Shown in pieces: positions 10,151 through 35,286 of a DNA stretch of 64,000 nucleotides. Location: the NCBI GenBank assembly GCA_034190875.2, contig CM067346.1, positions 44,709,363 through 44,773,362 on the forward strand, given 5' to 3'. Each line of letters starts with the position of its first letter. Position 1 is the first letter of the stretch. The notes under the pieces are model-generated. The model was not told the DNA's origin. It did not search any database and saw only the letters and a list, made by a program, of their open reading frames with translations. Both the position numbers and the translations under genes were made by a program. This DNA is from Urechis unicinctus. Its lineage: Eukaryota > Annelida > Polychaeta > Xenopneusta > Urechidae.

Positions 10151-11221
10151 CAATAAGTTGCTTAGCTTCACTATGCACTGGTCTGCATTTTCATACATCA
10201 TTGTATACAATACGGCTCTCGTAATGACGTTAACTGGCGCCATGATATGGGCAGAGATCAGCCTTAGTAGAGCAATCCATGGCATTAAGGGGATAATTGA
10301 ACGTACTCGGATACGCTCAGTCTACATCAACAAGCGAATGGCTATGTATATTGGGACACTTATTGGAAGCTTCGCCTCTGGTTTAATTTCTTTAAGCAGA
10401 TATATACCAAAGAACTTAGAATATATAATGTCAGGAGGTCATCGATGGCTATGTTCTGACTTGTGGCCTATATAGCTTAGTCTAAGCTGTGATCATTCAT
10501 GCGAGTGTAACATTAAGGCTTGTGAAAAATGGACCATTTCATTCGGTTACTGTACAGCACAGCTGCGAATCGGAAAACCACGTATGCATATGTTCGTACA
10601 CTTAGTGCACCGTCTCCAATTTGACAGCGGCAGAACTTACTTGCACATTAACTGACTTTTTTTATTGACATATTATCATCGTCCAAAGCATATGCTACGA
10701 TTTAATGGTTTCTACTTCTAACTACTTGGGGGATGTATCACATATTAATACCGATAGCCCAAGTAATTATTGTGATATCTTTCTATTCACCGCTAACCCA
10801 GCTTATACCCCAGCCTAAATTCGTCCAGACAGTCACCTTTCCGGGCATAAAACGGGTACTTTCAAATAACAGATACATCTTCAAGCGCTGTGAAATTAAC
10901 ATAAAACGACCAAAAATTGTTCATGAAACATGCCACATAAATGAATCACCCGGGAAATACAATACAAGATCTTTCGATAACAGATCATACGAATTCAAGG
11001 TCAACAAATGACACTTAAACAGCGTACACCATGACCATACGCTTGGATGAGCGTTAAACAAACAGACTTTAAATGAACAACTGACGGTTGTTATTTCTTC
11101 TACGTGAATGGTAGTTGTTCTTGAAAGCGGTCAGTTTCCTGGATCAGCTTATCACTGGCGACAAATTTACAATGTATATACTTTGTGCGCCAATCGATTC
11201 CGCAGCAAGTTTGTTATAGTA

Positions 11222-11385
11222 CTTAACTCTTAGCGGGTTGACTCAGGTAAGTAATAATGATATGCTCCTGGCAGACATTCGGGTAAGCAGTGACAGATTA
11301 ATACTTAATCCCTATTACACTTTCTCAGGTAAGTAATAGTGCTTTACTCCTAGTCTTTCAGAACGAGTCCTGTGATGTGTGGAGA
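11222..11385 (+). repeat. 82-bp tandem duplication with duplicated donor-like motif
   Basis: Two adjacent units (11222-11303 and 11304-11385) begin CTTAA and each contain the exact 15-mer CTCAGGTAAGTAATA (11242-11256 and 11324-11338), followed by CTCCT(A/G)G. The 15-mer includes a perfect U1 5' splice-site consensus (CAG then GTAAGT). No open frame leads into it that I can defend, so I call it a tandem repeat and not an exon boundary. Confidence 0.85.
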
Positions 11386-11599
11386 TTTAAATATGAAGTC
11401 TGTCCGACCGTTGCTCGGAAGTGTAGCACTGCGATCCGATCATATGATAAGATTATGCTTGTAAACTACAATCGAAGCGGAGATCGACTCGAATTAGCCT
11501 GTGTCTACGTATACTCATTCACCTCATAATAAAAACAAAATTGACAGCCCCAATGCCAAAATATTAACTATTATACAATAAGATTGGTAAACAGCAAAT

Positions 11600-11721
11600 G
11601 GGAACATCTAGGTCAAAATATTTAATTCTTATGGAAGGTACACAGTCTATATAAGTTTGATGAAGTGATTTTTTTCGTGTATGTGTATCTTTCTGAATAA
11701 AATTGCTTACTTACTTACTTA
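11600..11721 (+). mobile_element. Possible retroposon 3' end with (TTAC)n tail
   Basis: An AATAAA-like stretch near 11696 is followed at once by a (TTAC) run at 11707-11721. Short tandem tails of this kind directly after an AATAAA-like motif are typical of non-LTR retroposon or SINE 3' ends. I found no reverse transcriptase remnant or Pol III boxes upstream, so the element class is inference and it may be just a microsatellite. Confidence 0.25.
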
Positions 11722-14700
11722 TTATTGCGATGATCAATCGGCTTAGACAACAGAATTCTAAACTTGTAATATCTCCACCTAAAAAGATGAATGGTCATGG
11801 ATAAGTAAATGACAATTTAAACACACAATATCTTGAATCCGAAGAAGCATGGCTGACTATACAATACAACACCATGGTTTTTTGTGCCCACTCATATTAC
11901 TTTTTGTATGAATAATATCAAAACGAAGTACAAAAATGCAGTGATGGCTCAATTATACCCTTTTAAATGTGTGTATAATTGATTCACGCTGCTGGGACGC
12001 TTCATGGGTCTTTTGCTTCAAGCCAAATGATGACCTCCATAGCATTTGACGTTACCTCAATGAAAAAGTAAAATTTAGGCCAATTATCTGATGAGCACCC
12101 GTTTATGCTATGTATGTAAGTAATATTGTTCAACCGTATCTATGGCAATGGTACGTGCAGTTAACTCAAAATTGTACCGGCCCCATGTACTCACAATCGT
12201 TCTGTGTTCTATCCTACACATCATTCCCTCGAATGTGATACAATAGACGTCGTAAAACAGCTAATCAATGCAATACAATAGATTATCATTCCGTTTTAAA
12301 GCATATATAACAGGCAACAGTTTCTAATAGTTCTTGGTACGAAACATGCCATCAATTATTAACTTAAGGCTTAAACGTAGCGGAACACATATCAGTAATT
12401 GATATTATAACCTGGTAAGCCACATACCGTAGGCAAGACGCCCTTATCGAACGGAAATGTGGCGGTTATATTGCCCTTCTGAGAACGCGATATAAGACGA
12501 TGTCCAAGCCTGAAATGAATCGCCTGGATAAAATGAAAAAAACTATGTGGGTCATTGTAAGGTATAATTGCAATCATTTCTCGTTCTCGTGCTGCTTATT
12601 GAAAATCAAACGATGAGAGAAAACAAACGTTGTAATCATTGAGAGATCATGTAATGATGAAAAATCAACAAATCACCTTAAGTTGCTCCGGTTGTAATCA
12701 ACTTTGGCACCTGTATGGCCGAAAGATCGTTTTCACTCAAATAAAATCATCAATGTCATTAAGGTTATGTACACAGAAGTTTGCCATTGTGATATATGCT
12801 GATTAAATAGTAGCCACTCATGGCGATCAAACATCGCTCCACATACACCAACAGACGTCTATGTTTTACGGAGCGACTGTTACGGATTATTTCCGGTTTA
12901 TATAAAGTTTCCAGCCCCATGCATTTACTAGTATCCAATGATATTGCATAAATCAGTAATATTCATCGCAATATAGCAGTATATTGGAAAGAGAAGGATG
13001 CCTCCCATATGAAAATACTCTTTATGTACACTATGGCAGAGCGTGCTCGATTAAACACGTCAAAAATTCGCTGTACCAATCATGATTTTTCCGGTGATAT
13101 TTTCATTAATGGTATTCCACGTAGTAGCTTCTGTCTAAGGTGAAAGCTAGATACGGCCCCGACAATAAATATTGGCAGTGAATCTCATATCCGCTTACCA
13201 TTGGATGGGTGCACAACAAATATTCACGTGTGTCCACAAGAGAATGCTAACCTAATTAAGTTTGAACGTTGCATGATAATGATCACATGATTGCTGGCAA
13301 GCGATGTTATCAATTGTGTATATGGGATATTGTTGCATGCATCAATTGTAGGCTCTTGTGCATTGATAATATTCGAAGAATTGAGGTTTTTCCGCTATTA
13401 GTCACACAGGACAGCATATTCCAGAATAATCATTTATTTAGATCAAACACCTACTGGTACTCAATAAAGTGGTCATCACTTTGAGCATTCTGGCAATGCT
13501 CTTTGCCGAGTTTTTTTACGTAATTAACTGGTCACGCATATCACCCAAGTACCACAAGGCAGTTTACAGAAGAATAATTTGGAAAAATAAGTTTTCTGGT
13601 TTCAAATACTGCGATAAAACCGGGTTTATTCATTTGTTGGCGTTGCTAATATTACCAATAATGGATTATGTAAGCTTCGATAAACAACATATATGAATAA
13701 AACCTGATCTGTCAGGATTTTTGAATTTTCTTTACCATGTCCATTTTTGCGTTAGCATGTAGATTCTGGCGCAGAATAAACGTGCAGTTCGAAATAAATC
13801 GATTCTTGTGTTTGGTGACTACAACTTTAATATAATAAATTAGTGACTTGATCGACAAGTTTGTTATTTTTCTCGATATTCTTATGGAGTCAATATTTGT
13901 TGTTGATATCCAGAATATGCTTTTGCTATTTACTAGAATATTAACGGTGTTATCATCATTAGCTATACTTATATAAGAGATGTAAATGTTCCTGGCCTAT
14001 ATGTAATCACATCACTTGCTAACTTGTCAGGAACTATGGCTTGTTTTTATACATTCAGGTAAAACCATTTATGTTTGGATGAGTGCCTTGTACGTAGGAG
14101 GAGGAGGGCCGTCATCGAGGTCCACGTAACTAGCAACAGGGCCTTCTAGGGAGGTCTCGATGAGTATGTGGATGACTAGGCTGCATTGAGGCATTAATTA
14201 TTAAAGCTGTGACGTTAATACTCAACGCACACCTATGACCAACTTTGCCTACGTAGAAAGCAGGTGTTTTTCCTGCCAGTCCGGCAGCCTGTATTACGTG
14301 TCACTGCGGAGCTATGAAATCCGTGAGGCATAGCATATTAAATAAATATTGCAACTGAGAGGTTAACTTGATATGGCACTAACGTCCCTGTACTCAAATG
14401 ATAATTTCCATTGAGATAATATTGCTCTTTTAATATAAAATGCTTGCACGCATGCTCAAGTTATCAATGTATTACCAGCAGCATAACTCACAATGCCATT
14501 GATACTTAGTATGAAACATATTCGACCTGTGGCTGTTATGCGAACAAAGAATTGTCTTAACTGAGCTGGATACTCATATAGTTATGTAAATGACAAAAAT
14601 TTTACTACGTTGTTTCCTGCTTTTTAATGCTTTACCACTCGGGGGTATGAAACAAAAGCCTCCATGATAGTAACGCCTACCCTTGTTTCAGTCTCCCCCT

Positions 14701-15319
14701 CTGACGATGGCCTTCCGCACAGTACATTCTACGTTTTTAACTTCTTATCTGACGAATAATATTGGTACTCTCTTATCATAACCTAATAAACCGTTAAAAA
14801 ACCAAAGGCGAAAGTGTGCTTTAGATGTTAATACATCCTTTTTTTGTATGGCTTTATAAAGCGGCTGACACGATTCGTTTAGCAATAAACAGCGGTGAAA
14901 GTACGGCATTTTCGCAGTCAACTACATAGACAATTGAAGTATGCGCATAGACCTTACATAATGTACTCTACCACTCACTCTATTATGAACAAATGTTATG
15001 TGTCGTTCGTTAATACATATACAGCCTAGTTTTTTATCATTGAAATCGTTATTGGATTGGTGGCTGAACACACGCGATTCATCGATCAGAGACACCAACA
15101 ACGCTGTTCTACCGGAATTCATCAACATGCAATTAATATTCGACTGCGGAAAAGGGTATTTGATGTATTTCAGGCCGTGTATGCCGTACATTGCCGAACA
15201 CCTTATATATGATTGTTATGACAGTTGAAGTTAGGATAGCATTACCACATTGAAACAACTGAAGTTACCTACTCAGTGTGTGAAATACTTGCTGCCGCCT
15301 ATGCCTTCAGCTTTAACTT

Positions 15320-15500
15320 ACTGAAAAGAGTTGGTTAGCATAATGGTCATAATTCTCAATTTGAACATGATATTGTTGTATAATCTATATTCTGCTCTTC
15401 AATTATTTACCGAAAAGAAGTGTATAGCAAAATTGTCATCACTCCCAGTGTGAACAAAAAATTATTATATGATCTCTTTTCTGTTCTCAGTTTTCTTATT
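15320..15500 (+). repeat. 90-bp tandem duplication
   Basis: Unit 1 (15320-15408) and unit 2 (15411-15500) align along their length: (C/A)(T/C)GAAAAGA, then TA.CA.AATTGTCAT, a GTGAACA-like block, TATTATATGATCT, and a TCTG.TCTTC end. They are moderately diverged. No coding function is suggested. Confidence 0.7.
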
Positions 15501-17385
15501 TGTTTGCAATTACTTCGTGTATGTCGTCTAGTAAGAACCCCTTAACCGAATCGTACATAATTAGAAGTTCGTGATTACAATGGAATCATGTCGGGCAAAC
15601 CGGTACATGTGTGCGATTTATAAAAAATGTGGCAGCACAAATGCCCAAATATATGGTAAGCCTGATGAGATGGTGGCTGTCTAAAATATGCTTATTCAAA
15701 TACGTAGGCAAATTTCCCTACTTTAAACGAATGCGCCACATCTGTTAGCTTTATAAACGGGAATAATAGTAATCGTTACATAAATTTATTCACATTCCTC
15801 TCACAAACAATTACGGACTTACCATTCGACGTTATCCACATAATGATGGACGCTTAATGCTGCCCTTACTTCTATACTCCGCTCTATAACACAACAGCCG
15901 GTGAATTGACAATTGGTTACCGTCTGTGCCTGAGCAATTACATGCTTAAAATTTAAAAATGCGAATTTCTAAGATAGTTACCGTCATTTCGCATGTTATG
16001 AGAAGAGATAGAGTGAAATTGCGTATAACAATACTATATATATATGCCACAAATAGCTAGTTCGTTAGCGACTTGTTGAGCCAACCTATTATTAGACTCT
16101 CGTCTACTAATGATAATATTACTTCCTACCTTCCGTTTGAGAGAACTCTAGTTGGGATGAAATGACATGCGACCGCCATAGCCTTCAGTGCTTCAATCAT
16201 GTAGGCTGCTGTGTGGCTTGTTTTAGTATAAAAGCCCAAGTCGGAAAAGCTATTTATATAGAATCATAGTCTGCTATTGCACTAATTGTCTAAACAAAAA
16301 TTCGCGTTATGTGCACGCTAGAAGCAAACAACCAAGCCTTCCGTAATGAAAGTTTGGCTACCTCGGATGCCTCATTTTGCAAAAGGCAAAGCTAAAATTG
16401 CCTTAAGACACCGGTATTAAACCTACTAAAGCAGCCTGATTTGGTTGTGGTAACGGTGTGATGAATAGCACTTATTTTGGAAGGCACAGATGTCTACATT
16501 GCGCTGTATTTTTTGCGTAGTATGCGTCGCAAGAAAATGCGCACATTACTGTCGTTCTCGAACGGACAACATAATTCTCTTCAGGATGCGTAATATGTCG
16601 ACTGATTGTCGGAAACCCGTCTGACAAGTTTTCAGCATTGTTTTTCATAGCATTAATATGATAGAACCACAAACACCAAGTACTACCTATAAATAACCAT
16701 GTAATTTAACGACGCTTGGTGTGCATCTAAGCACTTAACGTTATTCGGTTTATGCCAAATGGGGCGGTTTTTTTCCAAAACGCGAACGTGTGCCGATATA
16801 AACAGTACGTCACATAGAACTAATGACGTAAAAGACGTAGTACTTGCAAATTGGTCAATATATGATGAATAATTTTGGTTCTTTGATTGGTTCAGACAAA
16901 AAAACCGGCACGATAAAGAGAAACATACAGAAGGTTATGGCAGACGCAAGGTCACTTTTGGCAATAAGATGTCTCGGTAACTACCACGTACGTTGAGATC
17001 TATATAAATGGGTATTATGCTATTATGCCGCTGTGTAAAGCCAAGCTGCCAATTATTATAAGCAGATATTCTACCACAGCCTACACGGAATGTCTAAAAA
17101 CAACATCAAAGAAGATTGATGGTCGATGACCATTCAACGCTAATAATGTGTGTATATGATGCAGATAAGATCCGCTTGTGATATTACTGTGATACTTCTT
17201 GATGCCCTAGGGAGCTTACCGCGTAAATATAGACATAACCTGGTGTTTTACTGGTCACCAGTGTATGATTCCACAAGTGACCTTTCGCGAGCACGGAGGA
17301 ATCTTTCTTTTATCGCCAATAATCGGAGCAACCTTACTGTAAAGACTAAATCCTAAGCATCAATTACTACCACCACCACTACTGT

Positions 17386-17386
<1 letters not shown>

Positions 17387-17484
<98 letters not shown>

Positions 17485-17505
17485 TATTATCATCATCATT
17501 ATCAT
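17387..17505 (+). repeat. (ATC/CAT)n microsatellite
   Basis: About 32 uninterrupted trinucleotide units at 17387-17484, then an interrupted tail to about 17505, preceded by a short ACC-rich stretch. The antisense poly-Met frame over it is an artefact of the repeat. It sits at the position in copy 1 of the 11.4-kb duplication that corresponds to the microsatellite at 28818 in copy 2. Confidence 0.98.
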
Positions 17506-18108
17506 AGGCGTCATCATTAACTTCACCATATCATCATCGTTATATTCATTATTAACATAGTCATCGTCATTGCAACTTGCATAATTGCATCTGCATAATA
17601 TGAAATGGTTATCGTACACTATCTTGCTCAAATGAGTCCCAAAATACGAACATCAAGAGAAGATACATCAAAATAATGTTGTCATTTTATACCGATCAGT
17701 GAGTTAAGAATGTTGTTAACCTCGAAATAAGCCTAACAAATATTATAATTACTGCAAACTTTGATACATTGCATCTTATTTGTTTCAACGGGCAATGCAA
17801 AAACAATTTCTAATAACGAGCATATCTGGGACAACACTTCAAAGGCTCTTTACATCACATTGTATTTTGTCCATTTGATTGGACAACACTTATGGGGCAC
17901 AGCCATCCTTCGCGATGATGATGGAGCGTTGAGGTGCCACGTTGACTGTGGGCAATTGCGTGGGATTTCAGATGGGTATTGAGTGTGGTAAGTACTGAGT
18001 ATTTCTTCGAATGCAGAGTTCTGACGTGTCTGAGCTGAGCACATACTTAGTACTGATATCGACAGCCAGACACACCGTTGAATAAGCCATCATCGCAATT
18101 TATCTATT

Positions 18109-18225
18109 AGGACGAATACCCCTAGATAAGAAACATTTTGACGCCGCACTGCCGTCCGACACAACTTTTCGGACAAATACCCTTAGATTAGAAGCTATTT
18201 GACGCTGCATTGCCGTCTGGCGTAT
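18109..18225 (+). repeat. 60-bp tandem duplication
   Basis: Two units share GGAC(G/A)AATACCC, TTAGAT(A/T)AGAAGC-like sequence, TTTGACGC(C/T)GCA and TGCCGTC. The period is about 60 bp. It directly follows the part of copy 1 that matches 29480-29525 and has no evident counterpart in copy 2, so it looks later than the large duplication. Confidence 0.85.
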
Positions 18226-18367
18226 GAACAATCCGAATATTCCCTCTGGGTGCGCTTTAAAAACTGTTCTTATGATAGGGTTTATGGTCCAACCTCATTT
18301 GTATTTAATCTGACGCTTCGCGAAGAGGCTGGAATTATCTGCATGTGCGGCTGTTAATAGCTCCCCC

Positions 18368-18384
18368 CACACACACACACACAC
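18368..18384 (+). repeat. (CA)n microsatellite, about 8 units
   Basis: A short pure CA run preceded by a C run. Confidence 0.95.
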
Positions 18385-21212
18385 GCATTAACCCATACCA
18401 CACGAAACCAAAGCTTGGTTGTCCGACGTCATTAGTTTGTGTCTATCTTCTTTCAAAGATAATGTATTTACCGAAATGGAATGTAGCTTGTAGTTGCATA
18501 TTTGCCTTTGAATTGCCGATGTAACACTGAATCAGATGCACAAAGAGCCTCGCTATACGGAGTTATTGGGTGGTGTTCAGAGCGGCACCCCGCAATGGTT
18601 TGTTGGTCATAATCATATTCAAAACTTAAAATGATCCGAGGCTTGAGGTTGTATTTTATCAGGATGATTTGATTTACAACATGAATTTATGGTAGATTGC
18701 TGATGGTGAATATCCCGATCAAAGAGTTTATAGCTTCTGTGTTGGGATTAGGAAATTTCGTGAAATCCAAAGCCGTTATCAGGCGACAATATTTTGAAAT
18801 ATGTGATTATTGATCCGACGTCTCGGGTTCGAAGTCAGCTATAGACTCATCTGATTGGTCGAAGCTTCCACGGCTCAGAATTTATCAGACAATTCCACGT
18901 GGATTTAAGGGACGCTATGACAAAACAACGCACGGCACCTAACGGGTGGCGTCTTTACTTTTTTGTTTGAGCGAGCGCTGTTAGCGTTATTATAAACTCT
19001 TTGGTTTCATGGCACAAACACCCTACGTTCGCATAGGTGAGGCATATCAATAGTAACGCATACATGAAATATCGATCGCGTACACCAATGGAATTTTCCT
19101 GCATGAACATGTTTATAGTGTCTTAGAAGATGTGAGCGGCAAACACATCCACGCGCTTTTCCGCAAAGCATTTTGGTTATTTAGCATTCAACTCGTGCAT
19201 CGCGTCAAAGATTAAGTCTTTTTGTTTACACAATAATTTTCACCAGTGGTATCATATGGATTTACGGGCGATTCAGGCGAATAACCAGTAGTCATCGCAA
19301 TAAACACTGGCATTTGCAGTTTCCACTAGTTTAGGTCCACACCATTTAAGTCACTAAATGTATTTTTTTTTACAAAGACAATAGACAAAGCGGCACAAAA
19401 CGTGAATGTGCTGTGTGAATAATCTGTCAATAATGGCGTACAAAGAAGGAATCATGCTTACGACCTATCCTATAGCCGTGCAATGAAAGACGATTTTGTG
19501 TCGCAACGACAATGACGCCAATTTACCAGCCAACCAAATCTAAGACAGCATTGATAGAGGAAAATCTGGTTAAGCAATGAAATAAAATGCTTCAATGTTA
19601 ACTCTGATATAGTTATCTAACGGGTTTGTCAAGTGGATTACATAACAGAAATCACGTATAATTGCAACATGGCACTCTGTTGTGGTGATAAGTCCTATGG
19701 CTGCTATTTGTTGTCCGGCGCAGTTAGGAAGCTATAATATGTTATGACAACAGATGTAGTGTACCAGCTATTATTGTCTCTTAGACACACCGTAGGGGAC
19801 ATCATACGATTTCCTTCAATGCACACGACCGTCTAAACTATAAAAATATATCTGATAAACTTTTGGGCGACCTCTGTCAACAAAGAATTGTTGATCACGA
19901 CCATGATAATGATCACCATCATCACCATGCTCGTCATTGTGGTTACCAACATTTCAACTGAGCTAATGCTGGTGTTGGAAGAAAGGCACATCACCTGTTT
20001 AAGGACGCTGAAAAATTCGAAAATCTACGAGGTGGGGGGTACGTCGTAAGTGGGATAAAAACGATATGTAACTGCTAAACATTCCCTTAATAGTCGCTTT
20101 ACCCATGATATAATGTATTGCGCCTTTTTCTAAACAAAGCCATAGACACAATATACGTAGTCTGCATACGCTATTGGCAAGGAGTAAATGTATAATTGAT
20201 GATAATTGAAATCAATCTGTATTCTTGGTGCCTGGCTTAGTTACATCTTGCGCGTGTTAATTGCATTGGTGAAATTGATATGGTTTCCTCTGGGTCATGT
20301 TTTACTTGCAGCAATGTGCACTTAAAGACAATTGAGGGAGTTACTGCCGAGCTTTACCTCATTTGAGAGCAGATATATTTCCCTGAAAAAAAACCCAGCT
20401 CTTCTCCACCACCCGTAAACAATTCATGGTTTATCGTCGTTATTCGCTGTAGCCACTTCTGTTTCAATTAGCCAATTGACCCTGCACATATTTATTGTAA
20501 ATTAGGATGCTCATCGTCCATTGGCCGCGTGTTGCTCACAAAATGTATCTATTAAACCGACCTAAGGGAACAACTTTGCCCAAATAGAAAGCATGCAAAT
20601 AATGCATTTGCATTGTTCCGCTGTCAAAGAACAGTGAATACGATTTGCTGGTAAGAGCGCATTGTATTAGTTCCATTACAGAGGTATGCCCCCGGGACGC
20701 CAGCATGACATGCTGACAAGCTCTATGGTGTCCCATATCTTCAACCTAAAGCAAGTAGCAGTGTTAAATTAATAGGGGGATCCTTATAGTTAATTGCCAT
20801 CAAAATTACATATTTCTTGGCTTGGGCGACCTCTATTAACAGCAACACGAGGTGCTATAATGAGCGTTTGCCTGGTGACGGCTGCTACAGCTGCGATAAA
20901 CGCAGGGTCTGCCTCGCACTTACCCGCAGTGGACCCGCTAAATCGACAGGATACTGGCATGAAATATATTTCGATTTGTACATTAAATTATACATTCACA
21001 ACCGTCCTAATTATGTGTTTTCATGTGATATATCACACAACATGCATCTACCAGCTCTCAACTGCTCCGTGGTTTTTGCGATATTGATTCCAAGCACAGC
21101 AACAACACGCAATAATGTAAATGTTGGTTAATGGTCCGCGTTTTTCGTACACATATTTGCTTACCGGAACCCTTTGGATGAAAATAATATGTATCTTGTT
21201 ATCGTTGTATGG

Positions 21213-21686
21213 TTATTTGAGGCGTTTATCGCTCGTTAAGTTAAGCAGCAATAACAACATTGTAATAGTGTGTTGCTTGCCTAAAACAATGGGCGATTGA
21301 CGGAAACTCATTATAGCCGCATCGAAATAATGCTTTTGATTATACTGCAACACATCAAGAGAATTAAAAGTTTCGGGTTGCAGGGAGATACCTGGACAGG
21401 TAGGATTTTGTTTTCGTTCAGGTTTTAATGGTGGTAATGTTAATGTACGATATGGTAGTTGCTTGGTATTTGCATCTGTATAATCGCCCCCATCCCCACC
21501 CCCCTCCTCTTTTCTCTCTCTCAACCACACATACTTAACTAAACAAGTGGGAGTGACTGGCGAGTTAATATCACCCAGCCGCATGGAAGCTATCTTCATG
21601 TTCTCTCTATCTGCTAGTATGTAGTGCTCTATAGCGCACCTTTGCACTGACTGCAGCTCTCGCCTAATAACGCTCTTAGGCGCCAT
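21213..21686 (-). other. Longest open frame (157 codons), probably chance
   Basis: This is the longest frame in the window. Its N-terminal end lies on the block that matches 10155-10330 in copy 1 of the large duplication, where no frame is maintained. The middle is a polypyrimidine run near 21487-21525 that gives a Glu/Gly-rich stretch and contains no stops. I recognise no domain, signal peptide or catalytic motif. In a 64-kb AT-rich window one frame of this size is expected by chance. Confidence 0.15.
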
Positions 21687-21826
21687 GATATGACCAGGCA
21701 GCCGTCTTTTGAGACAGAATAGCTATAACACACTACATCAAGGGGATAATTGAATCCGCCTGAACGCGAGCAAACATTCACTCAGAGCTTAATGCTGCCA
21801 CCGGCGCTTCCTTTTCTATGTTACAG

Positions 21827-21847
21827 ACCCCATTATGCCGATGCAAG
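21827..21847 (+). other. Possible 21-nt microexon
   Basis: A pyrimidine-rich tract ends in ATGTTACAG at 21826. It is followed by 21 nt and then by the perfect donor AAG/GTAAGTATG starting at 21848. Twenty-one nucleotides preserves reading frame. The corresponding site in copy 1 (near 10382) lacks the donor, and no neighbouring exons are recognisable, so coincidence is likely. Confidence 0.15.
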
Positions 21848-22011
21848 GTAAGTATGGGTTTTAACCTTACACCAACACGATTACCAATTGTTATTAAACC
21901 AACCACCTGATCCGCTGTGGGTCACGTAATCAAATGATGTGTCAAATGTTGTAGTATTCAGCCAACGAATATTATCCGGAAAGGAGAATGCCGACATATC
22001 ATTAGCTTTGC

Positions 22012-22042
22012 AAAACTGTTTTCGCTGGAAAACTGTTTTCGG
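22012..22042 (+). repeat. Short tandem repeat, 2 copies
   Basis: AAAACTGTTTTCG occurs twice with a 17-bp spacing. Confidence 0.85.
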
Positions 22043-25000
22043 TTTCAATATAACTTCTGAGTAGCCACATACTAGCCATCTTTGGCAAGATACGTAGATG
22101 AAGTAACGTGTTATGGCTTACACTAAAATTACGCTACAGCATTGTATCAAATCATTATTTGTGTTCTCATCTGGCAGTATCGCACCTAGACAATAACTCG
22201 AGCAAAGCCTGCACATCACCATATATGAGCAGAAGCATTGTCTATATGACGTTAGCATCACCGTCTATTGTTTTACATTCGGTGCTTTATAGTTTCACGC
22301 TCAACAAAATATTCCATGATATGTAGACACAAAATATGCAACTTGATTTCTGTTTTGTCGTTTCTCATACACCTACATTATGCTGTATGCGACCTTATTC
22401 CGAACAACATCTAAATGTGACCAGAGTTTTACCTAAATGTTCCATCCAGTTAACGAGTTGTTGTTGAACGTAGATTCCGAGGGACGAAACGCCGAATGAT
22501 GGCAATAAAGTCACTTGCCCCCTACCCATATTGATACACGCTGGCAGTTAAAATACGCTATCGAATACGCCGACCATCAACGGGAACTACATATGGGTGG
22601 TTCATACCAATAACAATGCAGCTGACACGCCAAAAGTAAACTTTAGCTTTGATTTTCGCTCATGAAATAAAAATTCATTTGGTCGATGATGAATGTGAGA
22701 TTACGTGAGTTATCGGCTTCTAAAATCCCATTAAAGCAGGAACATGACCACCTACCCCTGCTATTCCAAATTTATCTACGGTATTTCTGGTGGAAGTAAG
22801 TGTCAAAATTGATAGAGGTTGATATCAACCGTATACAGGTTGCGCTAGCGTTGGTATGTTGGAAATTATGACATTAATTGTAATAATTACGACAGAGCAT
22901 AACACTCAAAGGATTTCTTAGTGAAAAGGTCAAACCATTTTTTGCGTAGACAAATGGACTAGAAGCTATATAAATTATTCACAGTCAACATGGGACTATT
23001 CTCTCGTAAATGAAAATTAGATATATAAGGATTAGATACATCCGCCTGTTACAATTGTGATGGCCACTACCATGACACGCTACTACATCCAGACTTATCC
23101 TTAGGCAAGACGTTTTTTAAATATATCTTGAATAAAACAATGTTACCTATAACAGATACACCTTCCATCACAGATCATTCCATTCATTTGATACAATGCT
23201 TAAGTTTAATCCCTTTACCGATCAGTGCGAGTTTTGTGACATTTTATCACCATGTGTTGCAAACACGTCACCAGAATATTAAGCGAAGACACGTGGCCCG
23301 CTATAAGTTACCATGTATGCCAAGTTATTCGCCAGAACAATAACAACAATAAGTGCAACAATAAGTACATCATACCTACATATTGAGACGCTCGACAGGC
23401 AAGTTGTTATTTATCCCTCGTCTACGAAATGCCACAAATGCAAAGAATTGTTGAATGAGGGTCGGATTATGAAATTGCGTTTAAGCGCCTCTACGTCTTA
23501 AAAACATTCTTTGTTACGGACCCTCTTAGAAATGTTAGTAGCTTTTATGTCGTGCTACATAACGCACACAAGTGCGAAACGACGCAAAGCGTTAAGTAAA
23601 ACACCAATTCGATGAATAATATCAAAATTTAAAGGTATTTAAAGGAGGTGGTGACTATCATTATTTGGTTATTCACCTTAAAAATTGTAGAGATGAGCCG
23701 CTTTTCGACCAGCGATAAACGTAATTTTTGTGACGTGGCGTATGGTTAATTTGGTTATATCATATGTTTAAATGAGCACAAGTACACATTGGCTTTAATA
23801 GAAGAGATTGTGCTGACAGGCAATACATGACGTCGACGCTACGTTGTCGCACCACGCACTTCAAGAGCAGCATATGTTCCAAAACCGGGCTTAGAAGTGC
23901 TGCGCAAATGGAGAGCGAATTTTCAAAGTGACCGTGCGAAGTTGATGTGAAGGAATCTTTCAGAACTGTAGATAGAAATGAGCAAATATGTAATCTGTAA
24001 TATGATCTTGATCGCGGGGGCTTCAACCTATATATTGTTTGCCATGACATTAGTCTAACTTGTGCAAACGTCAGTGATAACATTCGATGATAGTAAAACT
24101 AAATGCCATTATGGGACATTTCTTGCTGAAATAATCTTATCCGGTGCTATATCCTTATCTATACGCTAATGTAGGTATTATAGTTCGTGTCCAAAAACAT
24201 CGAGTGTAACACATGGATATTCAATGTTTTCTACCTGCACGAGCGTAAATGGCTAGAATTTTTTTTCCACCGATCCTTTGTTACGATATAGGTTATATTG
24301 AAAGGTTAGTAGGTTCGACAGGGATATATGCCTTTCACATTAAATTTGACGCAAGTTAAAAGGTCATAAGGTCAAAAGAAGTATTGGTTGCTGTAATCAT
24401 GCCTCACTAGAACGTGATGTGTGGATTAATTGCATTTAACCGCGCACGGTTACTGCATATCATATTATCATGCGTAATTCACAAGGAAGCTTGGTTAATG
24501 TCTTATCGAAAGAGCTGACAAAAAGAAGTTCACCGATGTCAACAGATGTTAGCCTCCTATTACCAACCACTGTATCCAGATGATTAACATTCGTATATAT
24601 GGTTAGCCAATATAGCAAGTTTTAAGGGGTCTGTGCATGTGAGTCCTGGACACTTTTAGACAGCTGCCGACCAGGCCCAATATCGTCATCTTTATAACTT
24701 TCTCTATTACTAAAAGCTTTCATCACAAAATGTTGTGACAACAAACCGTACGAACACAGATCCGTTTTCAGCCCTATAACATTTGCTGAGCGGCATATGC
24801 AAGTGCATCTCGCAAGGCCTCACGATGATTCTATTGCTGCAATAGGTATATTACCAATTATCACGAGGCAGAGGCTGACATAAAGCTACTGAAATCTACC
24901 ATAAGATATGTTTGTGTATTAAAATGTAAAATATTGGTTTTATTGCCTCAGAGTTGTATATATTGCGTGACTCACGAAAAAAGTAAAAGTATAACAGTCA

Positions 25001-28000
25001 TTTGTATTCCTTGTGGATTTTAATGATGACCTTTACAAAGACGGTTTCTGAAATCTTTTAAGCTATCTTGTCTTATATCCATCCAATATTTTATCTAGTT
25101 TATTGGTTTACTAAATTTTGCGACACATGTGACACACAACGTGCTTTTCGTGTTCCTCTTTTGAAGTGCTTAGTTGTTTTAACCACGTTTTTATTGTGTT
25201 TGGCTGAATACATGAATAAATCATTTGGTGCTCCATTCATTGTTTATCATAAGCACAACAGAGGACATGTACGCATGATTGCAAATCAGTAACTGCTCTA
25301 TCATATCACAATATAAGATTCGGCTCTTTTCTATAACTTATTATACATTGTTTGACTTCGGGTAATCTAAATTTCATCATCGCACAAGGCTATATATCAA
25401 CTACAAAATTATCTGTTATATATCTAGGTGCAATTATATCGATGAGATGACGACAGACTTGCATTGTTATTAAGCAAGTTAACTTACGACATGCCTTCTT
25501 TAATTTAATTGAGAAGTATATAGTTGACTGTTGTTACTTGATTTAAGCTTTTGCGAGGTATGGTTGTGGTGTGGGTTGGAGACATTGGTCTTGAGTTTTG
25601 CTTAAGCAGCAAAAGAAATTAATAACATGTGCCTCCTCTTTATACTGATGTTACCGGTGCATAAACCAAACGGTGTAACGGCCAATTACTTTGATCCATT
25701 TATGATTTAATTCAGCATGATAACGGGATGTTCTGCCCGACATATAATAGCCAAAGAATCGTTAATGTGATCTGTACTGTTGGTTTTACAGCCCTACGAA
25801 AGCATTAGTTGCAGGGAGAAATTGCATACATCCATGATGGTCACGTTCAGCGTAATCGGCTAATATCTCAGACACTGGACGGCATTTGTATGGTCTAAAT
25901 TAAGGGTTATGCTCTGTTAAAGAGAAGCACAACACCATTGAGCTAACATGCCTGCGGCACCACAGCGATCTAACCGCCATATGAAGTTGTCATCCGAGTC
26001 ACGAGATAACAGAAAAAATGTCAAACATAGGGATTGGCCCCTTGATTAGTGAATCGAAAAGCTATGCAGCTTATCACTATCTTATGGACACCTGCTTCAG
26101 TGCTCGGTACCGATTGATAGTTCTGACAGTTGATAATACAAGCAACCTCCATGATATGTTTCCATGAAAGTAGCCAGGTTTTCATTGATAATATATATGA
26201 CTTTTGTTGGATGTCATATATACGATGATAGTGGTAAAGTTAAGTTTAACCTCATTCCATTATGCACTGTGCAAACAATATGATTAGTTTTTGTCTTGCG
26301 CGATCTTAAAACGTTAAAGAAGGGCCCGACTACATTAAGAAATTACAAAGATACGAAGATAAAAAGAAATAAGAAGAAGAAATAGGCTCGCGTTATCGTG
26401 CCTGGTGTTATCGCTCTGATATTCCTCTGGAGAAAGACAAATCCTTAGAAATTTTAAAACTTCTTTAAGATTCATTGTTGAATCAAGAAACGGCGTAATT
26501 TAAATTCTAACATGGCTACAAATAAAATGGATAGTCGTGGATGTCGCACTTACTGGGGATTTGGTAAGAATCAGGTTTTGCTACATACATTAGTCCCACT
26601 TACAAGAGTTGGTATTATTTTTCAATAACCTTTCGCGATTTTTTTAACCGCGCTGTCACAATTTGAAATTGCTATGCACAGCAAAATACATGACTGATCA
26701 CGTTCTTGGGCGAATAAGTGCCATCTGCTTCTATTCTGGTGTAGCTGCTTGAGAGACCTAATTGTAACCATTTCATCGTATAGGGAATACGTATTCAGCT
26801 ATGAATTATCAATAAAAGCGGTTGTATGTAGCATGGAATCGGTCAATGAGATTTTGTAAAACATTTATTTGGTGATGTTTGATGAAATGCATCTTTAACA
26901 TTGGTACCATAATGATAAGCAATCCTCAGCGAACCCGCCATAGATAGTTAATATTCCAAATGACGATATATTGACAGTTTTCCAACCATTGTCAGGACTG
27001 ATATAGGTTAAACCGATCAATGGAGTAAATCAGGGACGTACACAAAGCACATGAAGTGCCTCTTGAAGCTTAATTAAGGCGTACATTATATTCAGCCGTT
27101 GTTGGAGCCTCCATTTATTCTGCTGCAGGTGAATTAATTTGAGCTGTCATTTCGAATAATAGCTACAATAGTTACATGAAGGATTCAATTATTCTATGCA
27201 GAGTCGTTATCATCTTGCTTTACTGCTTTATTCAGGCAAAACTGAAAAATATAAATAGCGTTTTGCTTATCTTCAATTACAATGCACTGCATCATCTGCA
27301 AACGTATCCAGATAAACTGAAACGTTAACATGTGTAGTAGAATGTGTTCGGGGGTGTGGGCAGAAATTGCAAATAAATAAGACAAGCATTCTTCCTTTGA
27401 ACAGGTTATAAATGATTACTTAAAGCGCCTAGTAGCGATGATGACAGATAAGGGTGAATATGATAATTGTGTGTTTCATATTGTTGAAGTAAAACCATTG
27501 TACATTGAGAGTCTATACCATGTGGGCTCTCGAGGCCAAACGCAGTCGCATCGTATTGAATAGCTGTGTCAACAATCTCCCATGATATTCTGTCGCAATA
27601 GCATATAAGCCTCGAGCATGTACCATTGATACAATTGCGCCCACGCCGCAGGAAGTATTTTCAAGGACGATACGACTGCGCCATACTACCTGTCTACCTT
27701 AGGTATTGCCTCAATGTTCGTACCTTAGTAACTTACTGTTGCTGACAATACTGGTTTGATATTTATAATGTGCCGCTTGCCGAATGTTTTGCAGCGGGAG
27801 GAAATAAACTTCATAACGGAAACGATAACCAGTAATGACATGTTATTTTACAACATCCATTGTAATGATTGTCACCATTTATTGCGTTTATGCGTCGAAG
27901 GTCCTGCGAATGTGGTGAACTTTGGTGTCTTGATCTCCCATTAAGTGCTGCATCGTTTCACACCCACAGCCATCGCGCTTTTTTTCTTCGAATTTCAAAA

Positions 28001-28817
28001 CTCTCGTGCCAATAAATAATGATTCACGTAGCATCGTCAATGGGCGCATTTTCGGTCTGGATACCACCGCCATATACAGTTTTCCTACATTATATTACAT
28101 AAGTGAAGCATAAATGGTCAGCGAAAACCGAAGACTGGTATCTTCATTTCTGGAATTATACTTTTATCCTAATATTGAAAGAGAGCAAATGTGATAATCC
28201 AGTTGTCGAGCGGTTTGTCTGAGTCGATTTTTTGTACGCATCCCATTTATGATCAACACCGCACTGCATTGTTCAATTATCACTTAATCGTCAATAGAAC
28301 GGCCAGCGTTTGCCATGTGCAGGACGAAAATTCATGTTAAATGCTTTTAACTGCAGCCAATACCACGCCAAAGTTTCAACTCCGACTCTCCCTCAGTACC
28401 ACAACATTAAGTTCTATATTGTTGGCCACGTCAATTGGCAAAACACCTCGCTGCCAGTGTACAAGTGAGATGGAAGAAAGAGAAGTCTGGTAATGAAGAA
28501 CATGATTGATGGTTCACTTTGATGGTACGGGCCGTTAAAATGAGGCACGACAATATCTACTGTCAGCATACAACGTGTTCTATTGTGGTAGCTATGAATG
28601 ATGCGAGCATGCTACTTCAAATTCACAGTGCAATGGATACTCAAATGTACTATGCAAGTAGCAAGCATTTCCCGTTTTTTGTATCATACCGCTATAGAGA
28701 CTGGCATTTGCTCTTTGGCGGCTATAAGCAGTGTGCCTTGAGAGAACAAATCATGGCTGTCAGCATCGCTATAATCAGGAACATCAACAGCCACCACCGC
28801 CTTCAACGCCCCTACTA

Positions 28818-28825
28818 TCACCACC

Positions 28826-28899
<74 letters not shown>

Positions 28900-28985
28900 C
28901 ATCATCATCAGTAGCAGCAGCATCAAACATTATCATCATCGTCTACATCATGACTGTCATCATCATCATCATCATCATCATCAAC
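28818..28985 (+). repeat. (CAC)n/(CAT)n compound microsatellite
   Basis: A CAC run at about 28818-28840 passes into a CAT run to 28910. A short GTAGCAGCAG interruption follows, then further CAT units at about 28956-28985. The poly-His, poly-Ser and poly-Met frames across it are artefacts. It lies in copy 2 opposite the array at 17387, which implies the ancestral unit already carried it. Confidence 0.97.
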
Positions 28986-31909
28986 GTGATCATAACCATC
29001 ATCAACATCATGAAAAAACCAGCTTTGCTGGATTAATCCTGCACTAATATAAAATGCTTTTTGAACACTGCCGAAAGGAGAACATCAAGAAGAGACAAAT
29101 CCAACTAATGATGTCGTCGTAATTCCCTTAAGTGAGTTGAAGATATTGATGATCTCGTATTAAGACTATGCAACCAGCTTACTATGATATTGCATTTAAT
29201 TGTCTCCTATGGGCAGCGTAGAGCAATTTCGTAAGTGCATTCCTTGGATTCCACTCTTAACATCCAATTTTATTACTAATCGCCACTTAAGCGAAGCATA
29301 AAATGTTTCTCCAATCCCATGGGACAATAATCTCGTCTATGAGGCATTGTATAAAGGAAATGAGGAGTCTCTGGTGTTGTACTCGTTATGGGCAATTACG
29401 TAAGACGTCAATTGGATACTTAGAATTTGATGGAGTGCAGTATGCTGTTGTGTCTGAGCAGGGTACATACTTCATTTGGAATACGTCACAAAACGTCATT
29501 ATCGTAACATTTTAAGATGTTAGATGTGATTTAGGAATTAACGCTCCACTGTTGCCTGATTTATGCATTAAACAAATATAACCTCTTAACGTGCGCCTCC
29601 AACCAATTCCCATGTTAGCATTTAGAGTGCAAGTTAAATGCAGTACGCTGTACTAAATCGACGTCATATTAACTCGTTGAACATAAAATGCGTACACATG
29701 TATATTCAAACCTATGGCAATATTGAAGGATTCATTAGAGGATGCGGCGCATGAAAAAACTTTTTGAATTATGCGGAAAATATTCACGCCGGAGAAAGAA
29801 TCATGTTGTACTCCTTACAAACCTAACATTTGTACACGCTAATTACCGGCTCGGTTGGTGTATTAATACGCTTATAAACTAGCCTTGGTAGAACTTTGCT
29901 GTTTCCCATGGCCTCGCGGCATCAAGTGGACAATTGGTGAAGCAAAATATGACGAATTTGGGAACCATATTATGGGCAAGCGAAATTGTAAAACAAAAAA
30001 CCCGTTTTAGGAGTCAATTAAGGCTATGAAGGCGTTAATTATTTCTGCTGCTGTATATTTGCTGCTACAAGAACAATAGCTCATTCCGTCACCGATCCAT
30101 GGCGCTGTATAAAGGCCACAAGGAAACAAAACGATTTTCATTAGCTCGAGCTTGGATGACATGATTCAGAACAATCGCATTTACCTCCCTATAGCGGTAG
30201 TTTAGTACAAGGATCTAGTCGAACGCCATTACGGTACATTACGTCGATTCAATATTTTGAAAGGTTTTTTATGCGTAAAAATACCATCTTGGTTTCGCGT
30301 TATCGGCTCAGAAAGTTTAGTCCATTACCGCTCTGCTTGGGTTGCCTTGCCGTCTCAAGCTGACTCATCCGCCATTCATCTTGTCTTTATTTCTCTGTGC
30401 CCGCCAATGGTATAATTGAGAACAAAATATGATTTTTTTCAGCGATGTCTAACAGTCTGGTTCATTTATGGATGCAATGAATTTATTTGGCATACACAAC
30501 TAGACACTAAGCCGAAACTGTTATGGCACCAACATCCTTAGTTCACATCGAAGTAATTTGTAAGGATACATGAACATCTAAGATTGACCAAGTTTACCAA
30601 GAGTTTATTCTTCGTGATGATTATTTTGCCGCTGTGAGCGGCAATCATTAGCATCTTCCGGCTTTTTTACAAAGCTTACATGCTCTGTTAATTTGTTTTA
30701 CTCGTTTGTCAAGTCAAGGATGCAATCGGCTACGCTTGTGATTTTGGTATAACATATATTATTAAGGATTCAATTATCTAACCTGGAAAGCAATCATTAA
30801 GTCTCTCTTAACACTGATGCCAACCCCATGTCTTTAGACAACTAATGCCCGAAAAAATGGCTATGATCTCATTAGTAAACTAACGTTAATCTAGCCCGAA
30901 GAATATTATTTTTACCATATATCAGAATCTGTAATCGATAAATGTTATGAATCCAACATTACTGAATATGCTCAATAAGGTCCTCAACCATGTATTTTGA
31001 TTCAGAAACTATCACTCAGCACAACAATCTGTTATCCACTGAACGATATCAATGATACTGAAGCCAAGAACGATGACAGTGTATATGATGCAAATATAGC
31101 CGGTTCGATTTTAAGAGATAATTACAGTCGCAACAGCAAATGTATTTGGCCTTTGAAAAGACAAGTGTGCATGCTGCCCATAGAAGTATTAAACTAACAT
31201 ATTTAGCGGTTTTAGAGATTAATGTAGAGTTGCTTTCATTAGAACAATATAAGAGTAATGTTAAAAAGAAATGCATGGATCAAGTTGTAATCACAACGCG
31301 GGTTTGCAAAGTAAATAATCCAAGATAGAATATTCATAATAATGCATGCGAGCCGGAAAAATAGTGAGTTAAAAGAAACGTCGTTAGAATACCAATAAGA
31401 AGTAGGTGTGGTGTAAACCCTTCGTGTAAAACACAAATGCTTGATACAGTAGAATATCAAGGCATCACAGGCATGCTATTATCACTAATTACAACAGGTA
31501 TTTGAAATTTGATAAAGGCGTTGGTTAAAACAGCGTAATAAACTAAGGTTAGGATGTACGCATTTTTACTCACATGCTTCATAAGGACTAGCAACAAGCC
31601 GCACTTTATGAGCAACAAGCGAGCTGTACCTCATTTGAAGGCAGATTTATTTCACTGAACGAGGACAAACCCATAACTTCTCCTCAAATGTCATAGGCCG
31701 GAAAGAATTCATGGTTTATTGGGGCAATGAATGAAGACTGCATGTACCTCTCTATGGCGAATTGAGCGGTTCATCGTTAAGTCACCTGATGTTACAAACA
31801 GAATGTATCCTTAGAACTGATATAAAGGCACAACGCTACCCAAATACACTTCGTGTCCATGACATGGTCGAGTTGATTTGATGTAAGTGAACAGCGCATG
31901 TCATTTGCT

Positions 31910-33700
31910 TGTTAGAGTGTACAATTCAGCTCTTTCAGAGGGGTATACACCTGCTCGTCCGAATAACAGTGAAACCTCCCGAGTGCTCGATAATTCAAAT
32001 CTTGACCCTGTACTGTTTTTCCAATAATTGAGGCAAGTGACTTGAGGCGACTGGTGTTTGTTTAATTTACCAGTAATTGCAGCATGACAGAAACGTGATG
32101 ATAAGACGATGATAACGTTGAAACGTATCCCACTTTGCTCTGACGCTCGATTGGCCGGTTGGATACCCACTAATATCGTTGAGTGTATAGCTCATGCCTG
32201 TTCAAGGCACACGCTGACTTAACTGCAACTGATTTGCATAAGCAATCTGGAGTGGTGGGGTAATGGTGGCGTATATTCTAACGGTTTACTATCCACTAAC
32301 ATTATCATTTACTTCAGTGTTCGATAATATGTAAAACATGCTATAGAGGCGAAGAGATTCATCAGTTTTCAGATAGAACAGCCAAATTGAGTTTCGTATT
32401 CAATTATTGAATGACTCGAATCACATGAATTGAGCCCTACGGATATGACGGACTATGCTAGGATCCGTTGAGGCATTTTAGGTCTGGCACATATATACTG
32501 GCACATTGTGTGATCAACCATGTTCATATGAAAGCAGTGTTCTTACTAACTATTTTGTTCAAAGCCTTGTATTAAGAGGTACATTTTCGCTTGTCTTTCC
32601 AATCACCAAACATTGTCCTGCAATGATGCTATCCAACGCTATCACAAAAAGTAGATATCGAGCAGTCAGCTATCAATATAAATGTTTTGGCACTATGTAA
32701 CCATATGTGCCGAGAATCGGGATGAATATCCAGTACTGTTTTTGTTGCATGACCTTTAATCAAATCTCACATTAACCTTAAAAGGGCAAGTAATGGCTAA
32801 AATATGAATTTTCGGGGTCATATAGAACGCGATTTTATTATCAATAACTTGTAGTTCTTTTTCGTTCCGACACGTAGTAAACAAGAAATAAACAAAAACA
32901 AACAACATATTCCGGAACCTCCCGACCGCACGCCGAGGATGAACGAAGGCGCTTTGACGTCATATGTCACCAGAAAATGGTGCCACGGACGCCGTTTCTA
33001 TTTGCCAACTAGCTGTCGTACTAATTAAGCGCTTTTTAAAGACACTTATCAGCGTTTTTTGATCCATGGTTTCTTGCGATTCTTTGAGTATACTCGTCCT
33101 TGCATTTCCCATATGAAAGTCGAGTTCATTAGTTATGTTTCTGTGCTGATTTTAAAAACAAAATGTGAAAATTGTCGCAGGGGTGGAATGCGGCCTTTAA
33201 AGACGTTTCATCTGTGGTGGAATATATGGAAAAAGGGTTTTAAGCTATGATCCTTCCTCGTACACAATAAAGTTAAGTCATTTACATATTGGTAGCCTGT
33301 TTCCAGTGCAAGAACTCTAGCTATCGCTTGTCCGCTTGGAAAAGTGGTCAGAATTTGCACTTGCCCATTGACAAAATTTACATGGCGGTAGTGATCAGTG
33401 TGGGGCGGTTCAGTTTTATAGCTGTTCCACAGATAGCATATACTTTTGTCTCGTCAGGCTGCCATATGTTGATGTATGCTTGCCTGACAGTAGCTTGCAC
33501 TTGTCCTAGACAATCATCGGGCGATATCCATTGCTCAGCCCTAGCCTACTGTCAAATTGCTTCATATAACTTTACCCTTATGTCTTCCAGTCTGTGTCAT
33601 CATGGTGCGAATATGTGAGGCCCAGTGCTGCAATAATTCGCATCTAACAAAACATAGTGATCATGTTTTTCCCGAAGGAATTATGTGTATATTTATACAG
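31910..33700. other. Non-coding, nothing recognised; possible upstream intron
   Basis: Frames of 63-109 codons occur (for example 33289-33618) but resemble nothing and lack splice signals I could defend. If 33701-33885 is an internal exon, this stretch would be its upstream intron. A TGACGTCATATG block lies near 32957. Confidence 0.4.
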
Positions 33701-35280: not shown

Positions 35281-35286
35281 AATAAA
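35281..35286 (+). terminator. AATAAA polyadenylation signal candidate
   Basis: Canonical hexamer about 200 nt after the TAA at 35083. Supportive only together with the exon candidates, because the hexamer is common in AT-rich DNA. Confidence 0.3.

What the first reader, a model, noticed from the sequence alone, without database searches (positions are those of the whole stretch)
10155..31910. An ancient 11.4-kb direct duplication fills a third of the window
At least ten short exact or near-exact anchors link 10.15-20.72 kb to 21.6-31.9 kb in the same order, with an offset that stays within 11.27-11.50 kb. The two copies have otherwise decayed almost beyond recognition. Either a segmental duplication has stayed adjacent while drifting, or the locus is a remnant of a long-period tandem array.
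Basis: seen in the sequence. Interest (0 to 1): 0.7.

Follow-up and report, generated by a model that had tools for sequence, protein, structure and literature searches.

The report
Non-coding duplication cluster on one chromosome
The two similar stretches are real but only patchily alike, and they look like the oldest visible layer of a roughly megabase-long, gene-poor region that has been copied locally again and again, forwards and backwards, on one chromosome.

Summary
The ~11.4-kb offset is real but is not a continuous diagonal. Four ordered blocks of 10.15-20.79 kb (A) recur in 21.60-32.04 kb (B) at offsets of 11.27-11.51 kb, with profile E-values 3e-10, 3e-27, 4e-12, 5e-39; best reversed-control hit 0.23.

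A and B are old paralogues inside a larger structure. 73% of the window has another local copy (reversed control 0%). Window 1.25-27.7 kb lies inverted twice downstream; 29.8-64 kb lies in pieces upstream. Six genome marker searches returned 68 rows: 62 on C5 44.23-45.31 Mb, 4 at C5 65.17 Mb, 2 on contig C831. Left of the window 19 of 26 rows are plus strand, right of it 25 of 28 minus. Three markers recur in one order every ~110-150 kb. One 1.25-kb tract suggests gene conversion.

No convincing coding signal was seen, and no tRNA or Rfam match. Best reading: an old, mostly neutral local segmental-duplication cluster. Species, transcription and function are untested.

The parts
10150..20785 (+). 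Copy A (A0) of the ~10-11 kb sub-unit, with ordered landmark blocks b1-b4
   Evidence: inverted copies P1 and P2 (mostly 83-94% per 200 bp between 5.4 and 15 kb) and a direct copy F at C5:44.43 Mb (mostly 78-91%)
21604..32035 (+). Copy B (B0), the old paralogue of A, alike at the claimed offset only in blocks b1, b2, b3, b4
   Evidence: relatives of its 31610-32578 part at 44.489, 44.630 and 45.177 Mb and a weak 114-bp one at 44.939 Mb
10150..10320 (+). block b1 of A; B partner 21604-21755
   Evidence: E 3e-10 with A profile; further copies near -15.9, -17.9, +151.9 (weak) and +154.1 kb
17365..18060 (+). block b2 of A with (ATC)n microsatellite 17387-17538; B partner 28813-29472 with (ATC)n 28840-29011
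   Evidence: an ATC array lies at b2 in A0, B0, F, P1, P2 and beside a partial b2 hit at 73.4-73.7 kb
19005..19220 (+). block b3 of A; B partner 30521-30728
   Evidence: E 4e-12
20330..20785 (+). block b4 of A; B partner 31587-32035
   Evidence: E 5e-39 (to 31969; to 32035); identity 59-62% between A and B types, 82-99% among the 8 A-type rows
10400..17250 (.). middle of A without detectable homology to B at the claimed offset
   Evidence: 0 of 19 profile tiles at the offset; HSP scores near background
13511..14766 (.). probable gene-conversion tract shared with inverted copy P2: 1-5 mismatches per 100 bp inside against 6-14 in the five bins on either side
1250..27725 (-). stretch with inverted paralogues at window-relative +109.6..135.2 kb (P2) and, from 4558, at +77.8..99.5 kb (P1)
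29781..64000 (+). stretch whose paralogues lie in pieces at window-relative -89.4..-56 kb, mostly direct, some inverted (for example 50938-51698)
57000..57743 (+). marker R: plus-strand copies at 44.518 and 44.646 Mb, minus-strand copies at 44.912 and 45.153 Mb, a weak minus match at 44.471 Mb

Best explanation
The window is about half of one period of a local, intrachromosomal segmental-duplication cluster of mostly non-coding DNA about 1.1 Mb long. An ancestral ~10-11 kb sub-unit carrying blocks b1-b2-b3-b4 and an ATC microsatellite was duplicated early into A, B and C types. Larger blocks carrying A, B and further sequence were later duplicated head to tail every ~110-150 kb, and others lie inverted to the right of the window. 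The likely mechanism is unequal exchange and template switching between copies, which seed further events, with patches homogenised by gene conversion. Shown: block homology, multiplicity, confinement to one region at the sensitivity of six marker searches, orientation bias, relative depths of divergence, one tract with the pattern of conversion. Inferred: unequal exchange or template switching as the cause, and essentially neutral evolution.
For: A-B blocks stand out from reversed controls. 73% of the window and of the 257 kb of called bases has a local paralogue at E<=1e-8 and >=150 bp; reversed control 0% and 1.3%. Six marker searches gave 68 rows: 62 on C5 44.229-45.313 Mb, 4 at C5 65.17 Mb, 2 on C831. 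A, B, R recur in the same order on the plus strand: 44.435/44.489/44.518, 44.584/44.630/44.646, 44.727/44.741/44.766 Mb; 44.979/44.939/44.912 Mb reads in the same order on the minus strand, with B resting on a weak 114-bp match. b4 identity is 59-62% between A and B types, 82-99% among 8 A-type rows, 81% between two B-type rows, so at similar rates the A/B split predates the larger duplications. Conversion pattern at 13.51-14.77 kb. No codon-like periodicity, no Pfam match above a curated cut-off in the window frames identified, no Rfam match in three scans, no tRNA.
Against: The silent 7-kb middle is not what uniform neutral decay predicts, since the blocks are still ~60% identical; loss or replacement, or constraint on b1-b4, is needed. 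Several copies do not fit a tidy array: P1 and P2 have no R; the A copies at 44.32 and 45.07 Mb have no ordered B and R partners by these markers; C at 44.680 Mb is inverted inside the left half. 7 of 26 rows on the left are minus and 3 of 28 on the right plus. b1 has extra copies ~2 kb apart, so its 11.4-kb pairing could be coincidental, and part of A (18.66-19.01 kb) recurs at other offsets with E down to 5e-35. b4 is somewhat better conserved than its upstream kilobase in the 44.586-Mb copy (82% against 77% for both together). There are 8 frames of >=110 aa in the window, about twice the rate of one mononucleotide shuffle (16 in 257 kb). No repeat library and no expression data were available.
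Confidence: 0.75

Rival explanations
1. The units are copies of a non-coding transcribed locus (long non-coding RNA or small-RNA precursor cluster) under selection; b1-b4 would be exons or promoters kept while the rest turns over.
For: Only four blocks survive between A and B while the sequence between b1 and b2 does not. b1, b3 and b4 also recur in order in the inverted C copy at -15.9..-29.2 kb. b4 is somewhat better conserved than its upstream kilobase in the 44.586-Mb copy.
Against: Against P1 and P2, blocks b1, b2 and b4 are no more conserved than the surrounding 84-93% (b3 could not be judged there because the projection is misaligned at 18.4-19.8 kb). No Rfam match.
Confidence: 0.11
2. 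It is the remains of a protein-coding tandem gene cluster, either pseudogenised or with exons too short to see here.
For: Tandem duplication commonly leads to arrays of related genes (PMC13431229 passage). An intact heparan sulfate 3-O-sulfotransferase-like frame lies 35 kb left of the window. The window has about twice as many frames of >=110 aa as one shuffle predicts (8 against about 4).
Against: Lowest codon-periodicity p is 0.0084, unadjusted, over 510 overlapping windows. In 150 of 162 frames scanned no family had more than one member, and the 12 of 13 matches traced back are below Pfam's cut-offs, 11 of them in two microsatellite frames. The sulfotransferase frame has no second copy in the 294 kb fetched, only a 29-residue match at E 0.97.
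Confidence: 0.08
3. A and B are two insertions of one large mobile element, not a segmental duplication.
For: Similar length and orientation; parts such as 18.66-19.01 kb recur elsewhere at other offsets.
Against: 62 of 68 marker rows lie in one 1.1-Mb stretch, unlike a dispersed element; paralogy runs for tens of kilobases across unit borders; no transposase or polymerase family among the matches.
Confidence: 0.03

Closest known systems
Local (tandem, <1 Mb apart) intrachromosomal segmental duplications, as surveyed in 117 vertebrates and one starfish (PMC13431229; start of abstract and passages seen)
   Same: Large duplicates clustered within about 1 Mb of one chromosome; local errors of recombination and replication are proposed there as the cause.
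   Different: Here most copies are 59-89% identical, below the usual 90% calling threshold (recalled); no gene was found inside the units; species unknown.
Mosaic duplication blocks around core duplicons such as primate LCR16a (PMC7419210; passages seen)
   Same: Nested, mosaic blocks in both orientations along one chromosome.
   Different: LCR16a carries a gene family (NPIP) and is associated with interspersed duplications; no gene was found in these units and they stay within about 1.1 Mb at the sensitivity used.
Macrosatellites and higher-order repeats (recalled; review PMC8122249 seen in search listing only)
   Same: Units nested in a larger repeated unit, with exchange between copies.
   Different: Few copies, a period of ~110-150 kb, strong divergence and mixed orientation instead of a homogeneous array.

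Membership tests
Local segmental-duplication cluster | Long (>=1 kb) paralogous blocks | tested here: met
   Chains with 9-22 kb of aligned length within the 264 kb
Local segmental-duplication cluster | Blocks are not common mobile elements | tested here: inconclusive
   Six markers are almost confined to one region and no mobile-element domain appears, but no repeat library was available and the search skips very common words
Local segmental-duplication cluster | Copies at >=90% identity (usual operational threshold, recalled) | tested here: not met
   Chains mostly 56-87%, A/B 59-62%; above 95% only the 13.5-14.8 kb tract, a ~0.9-kb pair at +101.1/+130.1 kb, the 65.17-Mb copy and P1-P2 at b4
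Local segmental-duplication cluster | Clustering within ~1 Mb of one chromosome | tested here: met
   62 of 68 rows on C5 44.229-45.313 Mb; exceptions C5 65.17 Mb (4 rows) and C831 (2 rows); counts are lower bounds
Continuous 11.4-kb tandem duplication (the finding's claim) | Continuous homology along the diagonal | tested here: not met
   0 of 19 tiles starting at 10.5-16.8 kb hit at the offset
Macrosatellite or homogeneous tandem array | Many near-identical head-to-tail copies | tested here: not met
   Three head-to-tail units by markers, others inverted, b4 identities 59-99%
Protein-coding tandem gene cluster | Recognisable domains or codon-like substitution in the copies | tested here: not met
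   power low for short exons
Small-RNA or long non-coding RNA cluster | Transcription of the locus | not testable with these tools
   No expression data held; no Rfam match

The most novel reading that the evidence does not exclude
A gene-poor locus that has kept duplicating and converting within one megabase since the A/B split because its non-coding content is selected, for example as a small-RNA or recombination-control locus, with b1-b4 as the retained functional elements.
Probability: 0.08. Interest if true: 0.7.

Novelty: new variant of a known kind. Interest (0 to 1): 0.3.

Why it matters
It shows how an apparent pairwise repeat can be the deepest layer of a nested duplication history. 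Paralogues from about 1% to about 40% different, in both orientations within one locus, form a natural series for studying how non-coding duplicates decay, how long a microsatellite persists at one place, and how far gene conversion reaches between inverted copies. It is filed as a variant because it works like a local segmental-duplication cluster but is too diverged for the usual identity threshold. If neutral, the interest is moderate.

Tried and rejected
Continuous 11.4-kb homology was rejected: the middle gives 0 of 19 tiles, near-background HSP scores and background seeds. Constraint on b1-b4 was looked for in the A0/P1/P2/F comparison: b1, b2 and b4 are not above their surroundings; b3 could not be judged because the projection is misaligned at 18.4-19.8 kb. 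A function for b4 was considered from conserved stretches in the alignment, which by eye include a splice-donor-like and octamer-like motifs (motifs recalled, not tested); it was not pursued, since upstream sequence is nearly as conserved (77% over 1.48 kb including b4; b4 alone 82%). Coding content: codon-periodicity test on windows that passed its gap and mismatch filters; Pfam on 10 proteins, 9 of them window frames, where one frame had a below-cut-off match to Phlebo_G2_C (E 0.097); Pfam on 150 of 162 frames of >=63 aa with >=14 different residues, the 12 shortest left out. One search listed 13 families of one member each, best E 4e-6 and 7e-6. Rescanning 10 of the frames traced 12 of the 13: 11 to two frames over the B0 microsatellite and one (GPDPase_memb, E 0.0012) to 13442-13693; all 12 are below Pfam's cut-offs. 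The thirteenth (zf-RING_2, E 0.0067) was not traced. The first alignment of b4 (A1) had minus-strand loci in the wrong orientation and one misplaced row; it was redone as A2 and is not used. One search printed an empty table, probably through unsupported scoring options; redone. In one search the bins at 1.0-2.0, 13.5, 16-17 and 18.5-19.5 kb are affected by misaligned paralogues, so it is not relied on. In one search the 13.8-14.0 kb bins are misaligned against P1. Species: the cytochrome oxidase search did not complete. Whether the sulfotransferase gene is duplicated elsewhere in the genome: not completed. Markers 43000-43560, 62600-63600 and 7100-8030: not completed. Literature: three searches and passages of two papers; no claim of absence from print is made.
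Full report
Setting. The window is C5:44709363-44773362 of an unnamed 1.19-Gb genome in 926 contigs. That size and the lack of long frames point to a eukaryote (inference); the species was not identified. GC is 35-42% per kilobase. No tRNA (bacterial settings) and no Rfam match were found; the longest window frame is 169 aa. Coordinates outside 1-64000 below are window-relative (position p is C5:44709362+p).

The observation. Shared words alone are weak evidence: spaced seeds in the two offset bins number 5 and 4, with mean 1.28, sd 1.21 and maximum 6 over 130 bins, and many shared words come from an ATC microsatellite. Alignment is stronger. Blastn finds b1 10168-10301/21604-21754, b2 17365-18048/28813-29472, b3 19005-19218/30519-30727 and b4 20338-20780/31610-32035 at the offset, plus one shifted and two off-diagonal microsatellite hits; reversed B0 gives none, and the controls of all 12 A-by-B comparisons give one hit in all. 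Profiles of 3-4 rows from A0, its inverted copies P1 and P2 and the 44.43-Mb copy F raise the four blocks to E 3e-10, 3e-27, 4e-12 and 5e-39, against a best reversed hit of 0.23. The same search also shows hits off the offset: a local tandem repeat near 15.3 kb, and 18.66-19.01 kb at 58.3 kb (minus, down to 5e-35) and 50.6 kb, so part of A is a dispersed local repeat.

What is not there. None of the 19 tiles starting between 10.5 and 16.8 kb hits at the offset. Since ~60%-identical blocks are detected easily, the middle is not just more of the same decay: it was lost, replaced or never shared. The equal spacing of b1 and b2, 7.20 kb in A and 7.21 kb in B by the blastn starts, is the main hint of collinearity there. 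b1 is the weakest link, because it has further copies about 2 kb apart at -15.9/-17.9 kb and, more weakly, +151.9/+154.1 kb.

The larger structure. Comparing the window with 100 kb on either side (with one run of 6,567 N), window 1250-27725 occurs inverted at 109.6-135.2 kb, and 4558-27725 inverted at 77.8-99.5 kb; 39380-49558 and 56594-71270 occur directly at -76.6..-65.9 and -63.9..-51.1 kb, with some inverted pieces between; -19..-1 kb occurs inverted at 135-155 kb. In all, 73% of the window has a local paralogue at E<=1e-8 and >=150 bp, against 0% for reversed sequence; for the 257 kb of called bases the figures are 73% and 1.3% (the forward run also includes F as a target, the control does not). 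No unrelated region of this genome was available for comparison.

Where the copies are. Six marker searches gave 6, 19, 16, 14, 6 and 7 rows; rows are matched pieces, not distinct copies, and include the window itself. Of the 68, 62 lie on C5 between 44.229 and 45.313 Mb, four at C5 65.17 Mb and two on contig C831. Of the 62, 26 lie left of the window (19 plus, 7 minus), 8 in it (all plus) and 28 right of it (25 minus, 3 plus). The tool skips common words and scores only the best candidates, so confinement is shown only at that sensitivity. The 65.17-Mb copy is 96-97% identical to the 44.586-Mb copy over 3.4 kb and may be the other haplotype placed near the contig end; this was not tested.

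Order. Markers A (b2/b4), B (31.6-32.6 kb) and R (57.0-57.7 kb) recur in that order on the plus strand at 44.435/44.489/44.518, 44.584/44.630/44.646 and 44.727/44.741/44.766 Mb, with steps of about 148 and 144 kb for A, 141 and 110 kb for B, 127 and 121 kb for R. To the right, 44.979/44.939/44.912 Mb gives the same order on the minus strand, with B a 114-bp match, and B and R at 45.177/45.153 Mb are also minus. Exceptions: P1 and P2 carry A and part of B without R; the A copies at 44.32 and 45.07 Mb lack ordered partners by these markers; C at 44.680 Mb is minus in the left half and plus pieces lie at 44.872, 44.883 and 45.014 Mb; minus pieces lie at 44.23-44.30 and 44.471 Mb. The picture is a two-armed cluster with disorder, not a clean array.

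Relative ages. For b4 (11 rows), the 8 A-type rows are mostly 82-88% identical (P1-P2 97%, 44.586 with 65.17 99%, both with 45.07 93%); two B-type rows are 81% identical; A versus B is 59-62%; C is 69-72% to A and 61% to B. By the Jukes-Cantor formula, worked by hand, that is about 0.55 changes per site for A/B against about 0.18 for A-type pairs at 84%. The unrooted tree separates the two B rows (100%), and B with C (99%), from the A rows. At similar rates the A/B split therefore predates the large duplications. An ATC array lies at b2 in A0, B0, F, P1 and P2 and beside a partial b2 hit at 73.4-73.7 kb, while two further arrays at -47.7 and -39.7 kb have no b2; it appears to predate the A/B split.

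Gene conversion. From about 13511 to 14766 the window and P2 differ by 1-5 per 100 bp, against 6-14 in the five bins on either side. P1 and P2 differ by 5-17 per 100 bp inside (bins 13.8-14.1 kb set aside as misaligned or short) and by 1-6, once 10, outside. The simplest reading is a recent transfer from A0 to P2, inverted copies about 107 kb apart; no formal test was made.

Function. Against P1 and P2 identity per 200 bp is mostly 83-94% over 5.4-15 kb, lower at 11.2-11.6 kb, without sharply conserved islands apart from the tract; beyond 15.4 kb the projection is often misaligned. Codon-position bias over 510 overlapping windows has a lowest unadjusted p of 0.0084. The window has 8 frames of >=110 aa, where one mononucleotide shuffle of the 257 kb gave 16, about 4 per 64 kb: a modest excess, at least one of the eight being microsatellite. 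Pfam on 150 of 162 frames gave 13 single matches; 12 were traced and all are below the curated cut-offs, 11 of them in two microsatellite frames. The nearest gene seen is an intact 320-codon frame resembling heparan sulfate 3-O-sulfotransferase 5 at -34956..-33997, with no second copy in the 294 kb fetched. The best explanation is duplication-prone, mostly neutral DNA in a gene-poor stretch; unequal exchange and template switching are inferred, not shown.

Known parallels. In vertebrates duplication within 1 Mb is favoured over more distant duplication and is ascribed to errors of recombination and replication (PMC13431229, start of abstract and passages). Mosaic, partly inverted blocks on one chromosome resemble core-duplicon blocks such as LCR16a (PMC7419210, passages), which carry a gene family; none was found here. 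It works like a local segmental-duplication cluster, but most copies fall below the usual 90% identity threshold (recalled), so I file it as an old, diverged variant of that kind rather than as a member.

Noticed in passing
L020:5044-6003 (+), window-relative -34956..-33997: Intact 320-codon frame resembling heparan sulfate glucosamine 3-O-sulfotransferase 5 (phmmer E 2.9e-83 to 3bd9_A), the only frame in the 264 kb that I recognised as a gene.
   Followed up: partly
C5:65170260-65173698 (L033): A copy 20 Mb away, ~114 kb from the contig end, 96-97% identical to the copy at 44.586 Mb; possibly the other haplotype misplaced in the assembly.
   Followed up: partly
window-relative +101993..+108559: A run of 6,567 N between inverted copies P1 and P2 (assembly gap or withheld stretch); 101105-101992, just before it, matches 130053-130944 at 95%.
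   Followed up: no
window 38906-39703 and 45841-46633: Inverted repeat, 74% identical, about 6 kb apart, on top of the larger duplication pattern.
   Followed up: no
window 56083-56287 and 57737-57943: Direct repeat, 87% identical, 1.65 kb apart.
   Followed up: no
window 4558-4909: 352 bp at 93.5% identity to inverted copy P1, above most of the surroundings; perhaps another conversion patch.
   Followed up: no
L029 about 3.6-8.4 kb (C5 ~44.443-44.448 Mb): Dense tandem array with many overlapping ~75-80% identical self-matches in the flank of copy F.
   Followed up: no
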